Source: Natrinema hispanicum | Lineage (GTDB): Archaea > Halobacteriota > Halobacteria > Halobacteriales > Natrialbaceae | NCBI RefSeq assembly: GCF_900111485.1 | Contig: NZ_FOIC01000011.1 | Span: forward strand, 1-64,000 | Direction: 5' to 3' | DNA: 64,000 bases | The notes under the pieces: model-generated | What the model saw: only the letters and a program-made list of their open reading frames with translations | Database searches by the model: none | What the model was told of the DNA's origin: nothing | In this document: positions 16,250 to 20,008 of the stretch, piece after piece | Layout of the letters: every line of letters begins with the position of its first letter | Numbering within the stretch: position 1 is the first letter of the stretch | Translations under genes and position numbers: made by a program

Positions 16250-16514
16250 ATACACCCTGTTACCGCCAGCGGGGTCAAAAGGGTAGTGTTTCGTCGCCGC
16301 CGAAATCCGTCGTATTTCACGGTTCGAGCGCCGGAATGTCCAATTTGCGTGAGTGAATGCCACGCAGTTTGAGGATGAACGGCGGTCGGGCGTACTGGAG
16401 TGGACACCACACCCGTCGCGGTTGCTCGTTTATTTCGTGGCCCAAGTTACCCCCGTTCGAAACGTGACGGGAGCCGTCACTGTAATAGCGCTGGATCCCT
16501 TGGTACGTACAAGC

Positions 16515-17270
16515 ATGGATGTACGTGTCCAGGGGGCTGGTCCGACCGCGCCGTTTCTCAGTGCCCAAGACCTCTTCGAGACCGAACACGACCTCTCGCT
16601 GCCGGTCTACGTTCACCTCCGGGACGATCCCGACGAACGGACCTGGGCTGCCCACTACGACGACCGCCACGTGCTCAACATCTCACAACAGGCTGCCTCG
16701 TCGGCGATGGCCCGCGAACTCGCCCTCCACGAGTTCGCCCACATGGTCCGCCACGAACAGCAACATCCATCTCACACCCAGTCAACCGAAGAAGTCCTCT
16801 ATCTTGCACTGGCCGGCAAACGCGTCGAACGGCGCAAACTCTCTCACTGTTACCAGATCGCAAACCACATGAAAGACATCTACGCCGACGACATCACGCT
16901 CTCGGTCGGCCCCGGCGAAAAACTGCTTTCCTTTCTCGAGTCGAGTCTCGCCGCGGCGGTCATCGACCGACCCGAGACGCCACCACGGCCCGGTCTCGAG
17001 CGACTTTCACCGAGTGCCGATCCCGAGATTACAGCGGTCAACGCAGCCTTCGCACTCGCACTCGCGGAACGACACGACCTCGTCAACGGTGAACACCGAC
17101 TCTACGATCTCGCGCATGTGGCCGCGATGGACGCACCAGAAATCGATTTCCAGGAGTTCAAACGTCGCTTTCGGGAACTCGCGCGAGAGCCAGACACGAG
17201 TACCTACCGACAGGTGCTCGTCGACGCGACACGATCGTACACCAGCAGCGAGCGTCTCGCCGCGGACTGA
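16515..17270 (+). CDS. DUF5781-like protein with HEXXH motif
   Basis: A 251-residue soluble acidic protein that I recognise as the haloarchaeal DUF5781 type. It carries HEFAHMVRHE near residue 75, which fits a zinc-metallopeptidase HEXXH signature, but no protease activity is established to my knowledge. The ATG at 16515 (MDVRVQGAGPTAP) is preferred; an upstream in-frame ATG at 16353 overlaps the EF-2 promoter region. It lies between rpsG and EF-2 on the opposite strand. Its TGA stop codon is the first three bases of a TGAGACGG repeat element. Confidence 0.75.
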   Translation: MDVRVQGAGPTAPFLSAQDLFETEHDLSLPVYVHLRDDPDERTWAAHYDDRHVLNISQQAASSAMARELALHEFAHMVRHEQQHPSHTQSTEEVLYLALAGKRVERRKLSHCYQIANHMKDIYADDITLSVGPGEKLLSFLESSLAAAVIDRPETPPRPGLERLSPSADPEITAVNAAFALALAERHDLVNGEHRLYDLAHVAAMDAPEIDFQEFKRRFRELAREPDTSTYRQVLVDATRSYTSSERLAAD

Positions 17271-18121: not shown

Positions 18122-18550
18122 TTATCGCACCGGTTTCTCCGCGTTCCCGCGAACGAGTTCCTTCAGCGCGACACCGTTGACCTTGTCAACTTTGTAGTTG
18201 ACACCCGAAAGGTCACCCATCGCACGACCCTTTGCCCCACCGATACCGGCGATGGTGACTTCGTCGTGTTCGTCGATGAAGCTGATTGCACCGTCACCGG
18301 GACAGAACGCGGTGACCTGCTTGCCGTTTTTGATTAGCTGGACTCGGACGCACTTTCGGATCGCCGAGTTAGGCTGCTTTGCCTCAATACCGACCTTTTC
18401 GAGTACGATACCGCGAGCCTGGGGCGCTCCCTCGAGGGGGTCGGACTTCTCGCGAAGTCCACGGGCGCGGCGCGCGTAGTCAGAGTCGGACCACCGCTGG
18501 TTCTGGCGGTCCTTCTTGAGCTTGCGCGCGGCATATTTGCCGTTTGCCAT
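18122..18550 (-). CDS. rps12: 30S ribosomal protein S12
   Basis: A 142-residue archaeal S12 (uS12), part of the decoding centre. The loop [20 protein letters not shown] and the [14 protein letters not shown] region are intact. The ATG at 18550 gives [17 protein letters not shown], the standard N-terminus; the longer frame upstream has no ribosomal character. A TATA-like CTTAAG lies 25-31 nt before this start, so rpsL-rpsG can be read independently of the rpo genes. Confidence 0.97.
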
Positions 18551-18574
18551 AGTACCCGTCGCTATCCGTTGAAG

Positions 18575-18581
18575 CCACTTA
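18575..18581 (-). promoter_or_regulatory. TATA-like box of rpsL-rpsG
   Basis: CTTAAGT on the minus strand, 25-31 nt before the rpsL ATG, fits a leaderless haloarchaeal promoter. Confidence 0.4.
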
Positions 18582-18926
18582 AGCGACCCGTTTCGAATCA
18601 GCGAGACGGCTCGAGATCGCTTTAGATACATCGCTCGCCGAATCTGCGGCCGTTTCGACGACTCGAGTTACGGACGGAGCACGGGTTAGCGACGCTCGGC
18701 AGGCGAGAGGTTTCCGAACGCCGAGTGCTCGATCGACGGTTCGATCCGTGTCATGAGCATCTGCGGGAGCCAACCGACCGAGAAGTGAAAGAGCGGCTCG
18801 ACCAGAAGCACCGCGCTGGATACGAACGGGAACGGCCGATCGCCGAGTTGCTTTGCTTTGCGTATCGACACAAAAATTAGGGTTGTGGTTAATAGATATA
18901 AGTGCTGACTCAATACCCATTATCTA
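18582..18926. other. Intergenic gap between rpsL and the orphan DUF4255 gene
   Basis: About 345 bases with no convincing gene. Short frames on the minus strand (for example around 18686-18913) lack family resemblance and acidic bias. The right half is AT-richer than the surroundings and holds a TATA-like AGATATAAG near 18892-18902, correctly placed for the plus-strand gene at 18927. Confidence 0.5.
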
Positions 18927-19547
18927 ATGACATATAGCGCCATTGCCGACGTCAGCAACGTGTTACTCGAGCTCCTGAAGGCAAACGCTGGCGAGCGGAG
19001 CCCCATCGATTCGAATCGGATCGAAGTGGCCTCCCCTGCCGATGTCGACTCCCTCTCGAGCGTCGATATCACGCTGTATCCGTATCAGATCGAAACGGAC
19101 ACGGCGATGGGATCGGGCAGCCGAACGATCTCCGGGACGGCGCGACAGGACCGGCCGCTGGCGCTTTCAGTACGCTATCTCGTGACCGCATACGCTGTCG
19201 GCGACGGGAGTGACGACGGCGAGAAGCAGACGAACCCCTTCAAACGCCAACAGCGTCTCGGCGCAGCCCTCCAGCTGTTTCACGACAATAGTCGGATCGA
19301 GCCGGCCGACGCTCCCGCCCCGCTCGGCCAGGAGCAACCGCTTTCGATTTCGATCGTCGACGAACCAGTCGAGGAGCTACTGTCACTGTGGTCACAGCTT
19401 TCCGACGTGAGCCACCAGCCGTCGGCGACGATCGAGGTGAGTCCAGTGGTGATCCAGTCGCTGAACGAATCGGAGTTTACCCGCGTTGAAGAACACGAGA
19501 CGACGGTTGGCCGGCGGTCGGAGACGTCCGATCAACACGCAAAATGA
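18927..19547 (+). CDS. Orphan DUF4255 / Pvc16-like protein
   Basis: A 206-residue protein whose first 130 residues match the pattern I know from DUF4255 (Pvc16 N-terminal) proteins of extracellular contractile injection systems: AIADVSNVLLELLKAN at the start, VDSLSSVDITLYPYQIE, RPLALSVRYLVTAYAVGD near residue 75 and LGAALQLFHDN near 110. In known systems this protein caps the contractile tail or sheath. No sheath, tube, spike, baseplate or AAA+ gene is present in this window. It sits reversed inside the rpo-rpsL cluster, in AT-richer flanks, so transfer is likely. Role without a tail unknown. Confidence 0.72.
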   Translation: MTYSAIADVSNVLLELLKANAGERSPIDSNRIEVASPADVDSLSSVDITLYPYQIETDTAMGSGSRTISGTARQDRPLALSVRYLVTAYAVGDGSDDGEKQTNPFKRQQRLGAALQLFHDNSRIEPADAPAPLGQEQPLSISIVDEPVEELLSLWSQLSDVSHQPSATIEVSPVVIQSLNESEFTRVEEHETTVGRRSETSDQHAK

Positions 19548-19582
19548 GTGGACTCTGTGGGCCGACGGACCCGGGCGCGTGC

Positions 19583-20008
19583 CTACAATAACTGCACGTC
19601 GTCGATGTCGAAGTGGCGCTTCGCGAGGGTGCGGGCGGCCTCGATCGTCCGCCCGTTGGTTCCGATCGCGACCCCGTGGTCGGCTTCGGCGACTTCAACG
19701 TAGGCGACGGTGTCGTTGTTCTCGCTGATCGTGACGTTGTAGACGGCTGCCGGCGCGAGCGCGTTCGCGACGAACGTCTCGGGATCGGCCGCGTCTTCGA
19801 CGAGGCGAACCTGCGCGTCGACCCGATCCTCGAACCGCTGGATCGTTCGGCCGTCAGGGCCGATCGCCTCGCCCATGCCACCGCGTTCGACGACGATCAG
19901 GAGACGGTCGCCGCCGTCAGTGACGAGACAGTCGCGGCCGGCGACACCGGTGACGTCCTCGAAGGCAGCGAGATACTGCCGGGCGTCGTCGGCGAGCGTA
20001 ACCCCCAT
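19583..20008 (-). CDS. nusA: NusA-like transcription termination factor
   Basis: A 141-residue archaeal NusA homologue consisting of two KH RNA-binding domains without the bacterial S1 or N-terminal domains. Each half has a KH loop: GEAIGPDGRTIQRFE near residue 46 and GVAIGTNGRTIEAARTL near 108. In archaea this gene is conserved directly after rpoA'', as here (3-nt gap), and is thought to bind RNA in the transcription complex. It is the last gene of the rpo transcript before the inserted DUF4255 gene. Confidence 0.94.
   Translation of the reverse strand: MGVTLADDARQYLAAFEDVTGVAGRDCLVTDGGDRLLIVVERGGMGEAIGPDGRTIQRFEDRVDAQVRLVEDAADPETFVANALAPAAVYNVTISENNDTVAYVEVAEADHGVAIGTNGRTIEAARTLAKRHFDIDDVQLL

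What the first reader, a model, noticed from the sequence alone, without database searches (positions are those of the whole stretch)
18551..19580. Orphan contractile-tail type (DUF4255/Pvc16-like) gene inside the rpo-rpsL cluster
The rpo-nusA-rpsL-rpsG order is among the most conserved in archaea. Here it is split by one gene on the opposite strand whose product resembles the Pvc16 N-terminal domain (AIADVSNVLLELLK, RPLALSVRYLVTAYAV, LGAALQLFHDN). Such genes normally lie in 10-20 gene clusters for contractile injection systems. No sheath, tube, baseplate or AAA+ gene is here. The flank is AT-rich, with its own TATA-like box. It may be a stray from a transferred cluster, a distant piece of a system encoded elsewhere, or a protein with a new role.
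Basis: partly seen in the sequence, partly recalled or inferred. Interest (0 to 1): 0.68.

Follow-up and report, generated by a model that had tools for sequence, protein, structure and literature searches.

The report
Stranded cap gene of dismantled injection machine
The odd gene among the ribosomal genes of this salt-loving archaeon encodes the end cap of a phage-tail-like injection machine; the machine's other genes lie at three other places in the same genome and are partly deleted, so the gene is a leftover of a machine that was scattered and then broken, while close relatives keep the missing parts.

Summary
Window 18927-19547(+) is an intact 206-aa Pvc16_N/DUF4255 protein (Pfam E 9e-29) whose predicted fold matches caps of AlgoCIS, Anabaena tCIS, PVC, S. 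coelicolor CIS and AFP. It is not unconnected: of 391 class genomes sampled, 47 carry this family and all 47 carry a contractile sheath. The window genome has a sheath, two tubes, an anchor-like gene, an AAA+ and DUF4157 effectors at three other loci. This is the haloarchaeal contractile injection system (T6SS-like; Zachs 2024), pulled apart. The cap module sits at nusA-rpsL in seven genomes of the genus; an inversion of about 60 kb then split sheath/tube from baseplate in five. Relatives such as Natrinema hispanicum keep the baseplate. Here the AAA+ beside the cap is a ~200-bp stump (18680-18876), a 1.35-kb deletion removed the 5' parts of the sheath and fib genes, and a 12.8-kb deletion removed the baseplate. 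Trees place the cap in another lineage than the sheath. Best reading: a still intact leftover of a dispersed, mosaic machine, probably non-functional here. What deserves notice is the recurrent dispersal and module exchange, not the gene itself.

The parts
18927..19547 (+). cap / sheath-tube terminator protein (Pvc16_N, DUF4255), 206 aa, intact
   Evidence: Pfam PF14065 9e-29; AlphaFold model pLDDT 78, best PDB hits are CIS caps 7adz, 7b5i, 9qgn, 6j0f, 9gts, 6rap; dN/dS 0.16-0.22
18680..18876 (+). relic of the 3' end (and following spacer) of an AAA+ ATPase gene that stands directly upstream of the cap gene in Natrinema limicola and Haloterrigena sp. H1
   Evidence: local alignment score 57 against the N. 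limicola sequence; mean 11, maximum 17 in 500 shuffles; also seen in the alignment
18889..18902 (+). TATA-like box upstream of the cap gene (possible leaderless promoter)
   Evidence: TTAATAGATATAAG conserved in N. hispanicum and nearly so in G074, absent in N. limicola where the AAA+ gene is present; by sequence only
18122..18550 (-). rpsL (ribosomal protein S12), flank of the insertion site
   Evidence: sequence reading and conservation across the genus
19583..20008 (-). nusA, flank of the insertion site
   Evidence: KH domains PF13184; found in 29 of 29 genus genomes

Best explanation
The gene encodes the cap that ends the tube and sheath of the haloarchaeal contractile injection system. 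In this Natrinema-type lineage the machine's genes were scattered in steps, and in this genome it was then broken. Shown: (1) The ordinary arrangement is one cluster between the pyruvate dehydrogenase E2 gene and lpd. (2) In seven genomes the cap, in four of them still with its AAA+ ATPase and DUF4157 effectors, sits at nusA-rpsL. (3) In five of these an inversion with one breakpoint inside the cluster separated fib-sheath-tube genes from anchor-baseplate genes. (4) In three of these the AAA+ at nusA-rpsL is gone, in the window genome leaving a 3' stump, while another AAA+ with DUF4157 effectors stands at a fourth place. (5) In the window genome a 1.35-kb deletion removed the first 165 codons of the sheath, the 5' part of the divergent fib gene and the sequence between them, and a 12.8-kb deletion removed the baseplate. 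Inferred: the cap protein still folds and could cap a tube, but no contractile particle can be assembled here, so the gene is a leftover that has not yet decayed. In relatives that keep the parts (N. hispanicum, N. limicola) a four-locus machine probably still works like the archaeal T6SS: cap proteins close the distal end, AAA+ helps load DUF4157 effectors, sheath contraction injects them.
For: Family and fold. One sheath in the genome next to two tube genes, and DUF4157 genes next to an AAA+. Co-occurrence with a sheath 32 of 32 in the family sample and 47 of 47 in the class sample. Cap at nusA-rpsL in G000, G057, G058, G059, G060, G071, G074. AAA+ stump. Inversion: derived marker order in five genomes, ancestral order in three. 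Sheath/fib deletion: flanks 95-97% identical to N. hispanicum, the missing 1351 bp found nowhere in the genome. Baseplate deletion: flanks 92-94% identical, 12,846 bp missing inside one contig; no hub protein and no Baseplate_J. Canonical DUF4157-AAA-DUF4255-tube-sheath order in an annotated Haloferax larsenii plasmid. Haloarchaeal CIS and its T6SS mode: Zachs et al. 2024, PMC11566945; a short single-domain cap like this one is Alg16A, 197 aa (PMC8894135).
Against: The cap ORF is intact and its pairwise dN/dS is low, as expected of a used gene, though a recent break would look the same. Both deletions rest on an unverified 92-contig draft assembly; no reads were available. N. limicola, close to the window genome in cap, sheath and NusA, still has AAA+ at nusA-rpsL while the more distant G074 shares the AAA+ loss with the window genome, so allele exchange at this site (or repeated loss) must be assumed.
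Confidence: 0.87

Rival explanations
1. The dispersed machine is still functional in the window strain, and the two deletions are assembly errors.
For: Cap, both tube genes, the gene between them, the anchor-like gene, AAA+ and effectors are all open; relatives keep intact versions of the missing parts.
Against: Both junctions lie inside contigs with 92-97% identical flanks; the missing DNA is nowhere in a genome scored 100% complete. A related genome (G071) also lacks the baseplate, so such losses do occur.
Confidence: 0.07
2. The cap protein has been given a new job, for example binding another ring or tube, which is why it survives alone at nusA-rpsL under its own promoter.
For: Intact, low dN/dS, a TATA-like box conserved in the three genomes in which AAA+ is gone from this site.
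Against: The family is never found without a sheath in 391 class genomes; in G057 and G074, where the cap also stands alone, sheath, tubes and baseplate genes are present elsewhere, so its old job explains its survival there.
Confidence: 0.04
3. A recent stray arrival by transfer of the cap gene alone, unconnected to this genome's own machine.
For: Cap and sheath trees disagree: the cap groups with G034/G046/G118, the sheath with G051/G052/G054/G072.
Against: It sits at the same site in seven genomes, with AAA+ and effectors in four of them, and an AAA+ stump here; so a module moved before these species parted, not the gene alone and not recently.
Confidence: 0.02

Closest known systems
Haloarchaeal CIS / archaeal T6SS (Halogeometricum borinquense, Haloferax elongans; Zachs et al. 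2024, PMC11566945)
   Same: Same component set in relatives: sheath, two gp19-type tubes, LysM/CIS_tube protein, GPD hub, base V, gp25-like and J-like proteins, AAA+, cap, DUF4157 effectors, and a six-helix membrane protein with a soluble C-terminal region.
   Different: The paper reports gene clusters of conserved synteny; here the genes lie at four loci, the cap module has another ancestry than the sheath, and in the window genome sheath and baseplate are damaged or lost.
Alg16A cap of AlgoCIS (PDB 7adz) and the Anabaena tCIS cap (7b5i)
   Same: Single-domain cap of about 190-200 aa; best two fold matches, E 1.8e-9 and 2.4e-8.
   Different: Only 11-16% identity; a separate cap-adaptor gene (Alg16B type) was not looked for here.
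Pvc16 / Afp16 terminators of PVC and AFP (6j0f, 6rap)
   Same: Same N-terminal domain.
   Different: PVC/AFP proteins have an additional C-terminal domain (293 and 295 aa; PMC8894135); the present protein ends after the N-terminal domain.

Membership tests
Pvc16_N / DUF4255 cap proteins (PF14065) | profile match above the curated cut-off over most of the model | tested here: met
   100.9 bits against 27, positions 1-176 of 180
Pvc16_N / DUF4255 cap proteins (PF14065) | fold of CIS caps | tested here: met
   six best PDB matches are all CIS caps, E 1.8e-9 to 1.3e-5, query TM 0.55-0.62
Pvc16_N / DUF4255 cap proteins (PF14065) | forms a hexamer that closes the tube end | not testable with these tools
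   needs biochemistry or cryo-EM
Haloarchaeal CIS (T6SS mode) | sheath, tube and baseplate genes in the same genome, intact | tested here: not met
   sheath lacks its first 165 residues and the baseplate genes are missing in the window genome; hub gene and baseplate cluster are present in N. hispanicum, N. limicola and G074
Haloarchaeal CIS (T6SS mode) | genes in one cluster | tested here: not met
   four loci in the window genome
Haloarchaeal CIS (T6SS mode) | six-helix putative membrane anchor (Hbor_38620 type) | tested here: inconclusive
   six hydrophobic segments and a soluble C-terminal region in the 372-376 aa protein; homology to Hbor_38620 itself not tested
Haloarchaeal CIS (T6SS mode) | DUF4157 effectors and AAA+ together with the cap | tested here: met
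   met in relatives and in the annotated Haloferax larsenii plasmid; in the window genome AAA+ and effectors are at another locus, with an AAA+ stump beside the cap

The most novel reading that the evidence does not exclude
In this family of haloarchaea contractile injection systems are repeatedly taken apart into modules (sheath/tube, baseplate/anchor, cap/AAA+/effectors) at separate chromosomal sites, stay functional in that state, and exchange the cap/AAA+/effector module between lineages independently of the sheath.
Probability: 0.5. Interest if true: 0.58.

Novelty: new variant of a known kind. Interest (0 to 1): 0.45.

Why it matters
Surveys look for these machines as gene clusters, so scattered ones are missed or dismissed as orphan genes. 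The set of related genomes here shows the steps from one cluster, to scattered but apparently complete, to broken, and gives a natural test of whether an injection machine needs its genes together and which parts can be exchanged. It also suggests that the cap, the AAA+ and the effectors form one exchangeable unit.

Tried and rejected
PHROGs, NCBIfam and phmmer against PDB sequences gave no match for the protein, nor did tblastn against phages, so a provirus origin has no support. A transfer of the cap alone was rejected because of the AAA+ stump and the shared site. A contig-end explanation for the missing baseplate was considered, since the place lies near the end of contig C68, and rejected: both flanks of the deletion are present inside the contig. 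The sigma-70 scan found nothing and does not cover archaeal promoters. dN/dS of the sheath was not obtained (frame error in my script). Literature searches found no report of split haloarchaeal CIS, but supplements could not be read. A DNA search for the anchor-like gene on plasmids gave nothing.

Full report
What is there. Window 18927-19547(+) is an open reading frame of 206 aa between rpsL and nusA, on the opposite strand. It matches Pfam Pvc16_N/DUF4255 with E 9.2e-29 over nearly the whole profile. An AlphaFold model built on 29 sequences has mean pLDDT 78. The six best PDB matches of the model are all caps of contractile injection systems: AlgoCIS, Anabaena tCIS, PVC (two entries), Streptomyces coelicolor CIS and AFP. 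At 206 aa it corresponds to the short, single-domain cap type (Alg16A has 197 aa, PMC8894135).

It is not unconnected. The window lies in a 3.96-Mb, 92-contig genome (G000, contig C50) with exactly one Pvc16_N gene and one sheath gene. The sheath is on contig C68, followed by a tube gene, a 186-aa gene and a second tube gene. In 125 genomes of the family, 32 have Pvc16_N and the same 32 have a sheath; one further genome has a weak sheath-like match. In 391 genomes of the class, 47 have Pvc16_N and all 47 have a sheath. DUF4157 (eCIS_core) effectors with an AAA+ gene lie on contig C58. Pfam on one relative's cluster (G072) confirms sheath, two gp19 tubes, AAA+, eCIS_core, CIS_tube/LysM, GPD hub and base V.

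The normal arrangement. In G072, G054 and G034 cap and AAA+ sit inside one cluster with sheath, tubes, effectors and baseplate. The same DUF4157-AAA-DUF4255-tube-sheath order is annotated on a Haloferax larsenii plasmid. This is the haloarchaeal CIS shown to act as a contact-dependent T6SS-like weapon in Halogeometricum borinquense (Zachs et al. 2024, PMC11566945), where gene clusters with conserved synteny were described.

Taken apart in steps. (a) In seven genomes of this genus the cap stands at nusA-rpsL: G000, G057, G058, G059, G060, G071, G074. In G058, G059, G060 and G071 it is there with AAA+ and DUF4157 effectors. Contig lengths identify G057 as Natrinema hispanicum DSM 18328, G058 as N. 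limicola JCM 13563, G059 as N. ejinorense JCM 13890 and G071 as Haloterrigena sp. H1. (b) In G000, G057, G058, G071 and G074 the order of flanking markers shows one inversion of about 60 kb with a breakpoint between tube2 and the anchor-like gene; G059, G060 and G072 keep the unbroken order from the E2 gene to lpd (G058 is read from separate contigs; E2 and lpd were recognised by eye). (c) In G000, G057 and G074 AAA+ and effectors are gone from nusA-rpsL. In the window a stump of the AAA+ 3' end remains at 18680-18876: score 57 against mean 11 and maximum 17 in 500 shuffles. Another AAA+ with effectors stands at a fourth locus, between genes that by eye are pdxT and hisE. (d) N. hispanicum, N. 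limicola and G074 keep the hub gene and baseplate cluster at the third locus; the sheath is full-length in N. hispanicum and G074, and cut by the contig end in N. limicola.

Broken here. Compared with N. hispanicum, the window genome lacks 1.35 kb that held the 5' parts of the sheath and of the divergent fib gene, and this DNA is nowhere in the genome. It also lacks 12,846 bp with the baseplate genes between the anchor-like gene and lpd, with both flanks in one contig; hub protein and Baseplate_J are absent from the genome. A sheath without its first 165 residues and a machine without a baseplate should not work; this is inference. Pairwise dN/dS of the cap is 0.16-0.22 against relatives, so the gene was under selection for most of its history; a recent break would not yet show.

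Mosaic origin. In the cap tree the nusA-rpsL caps group with G034, G046 and G118; in the sheath tree the same genomes group with G051, G052, G054 and G072. Holding the nusA-rpsL caps together with those of G051/52/54/72 is rejected weakly (AU p 0.018); holding the sheaths together with those of G034/46/118 is rejected strongly (p 0.0006). The groups were named after the first trees were seen. The AAA+ tree is compatible with the cap tree but less certain. So the cap, probably with its AAA+, was exchanged as a module.

Not only here. In G030 and G033, genomes of another genus with all three genes on one contig, cap, sheath and hub lie at three distant places; in G248, of another family, cap and sheath are 0.75 Mb apart. 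Dispersal therefore probably arose more than once.

The site. The nusA-rpsL gap is short in several genus members, and holds an aldehyde-dehydrogenase-like gene or a dehydrogenase-type operon in others (named by eye). It is an insertion site, so a foreign gene there is not by itself remarkable.

Open points. N. limicola is close to the window genome yet keeps AAA+ at nusA-rpsL, while G074, more distant, shares its loss; allele exchange at the site is the likely cause but was not tested. The deletions were not checked with reads.

Noticed in passing
window 18551-19582 and the nusA-rpsL gap in loci L143-L180: The nusA-rpsL gap is a variable insertion site in this genus: nearly empty, aldehyde-dehydrogenase-like gene plus a 217-aa gene, a dehydrogenase-type operon, or the CIS cap module.
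   Followed up: partly
window 16353-17270 (+): DUF5781 gene (PF19093, E 5e-132) with a weak IrrE-like peptidase match, between rpsG and EF-2, also opposite to its neighbours.
   Followed up: no
L117/L118, contig C58:244051-251339 of the window genome: AAA+ gene with two DUF4157 effectors and their partner genes at a separate locus, by eye between pdxT and hisE; an AAA+ of the same clade with DUF4157 effectors also in N. hispanicum, N. limicola and N. ejinorense.
   Followed up: partly
G030:C1 and G033:C1 (coordinates): Independent-looking three-way dispersal of cap, sheath and hub genes in a second genus.
   Followed up: partly
L086/L087, L136 and L264 (G071, Haloterrigena sp. H1): Full-length sheath but no hub protein anywhere, and lpd close to the m408 marker: a separate loss of the baseplate, larger than in the window genome.
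   Followed up: partly
L163/L166 (G066:C3:579506-581657): A second, diverged nusA-like copy with an internal TAG close to the first.
   Followed up: no
G096: Two Pvc16_N genes on different contigs but a single sheath.
   Followed up: no
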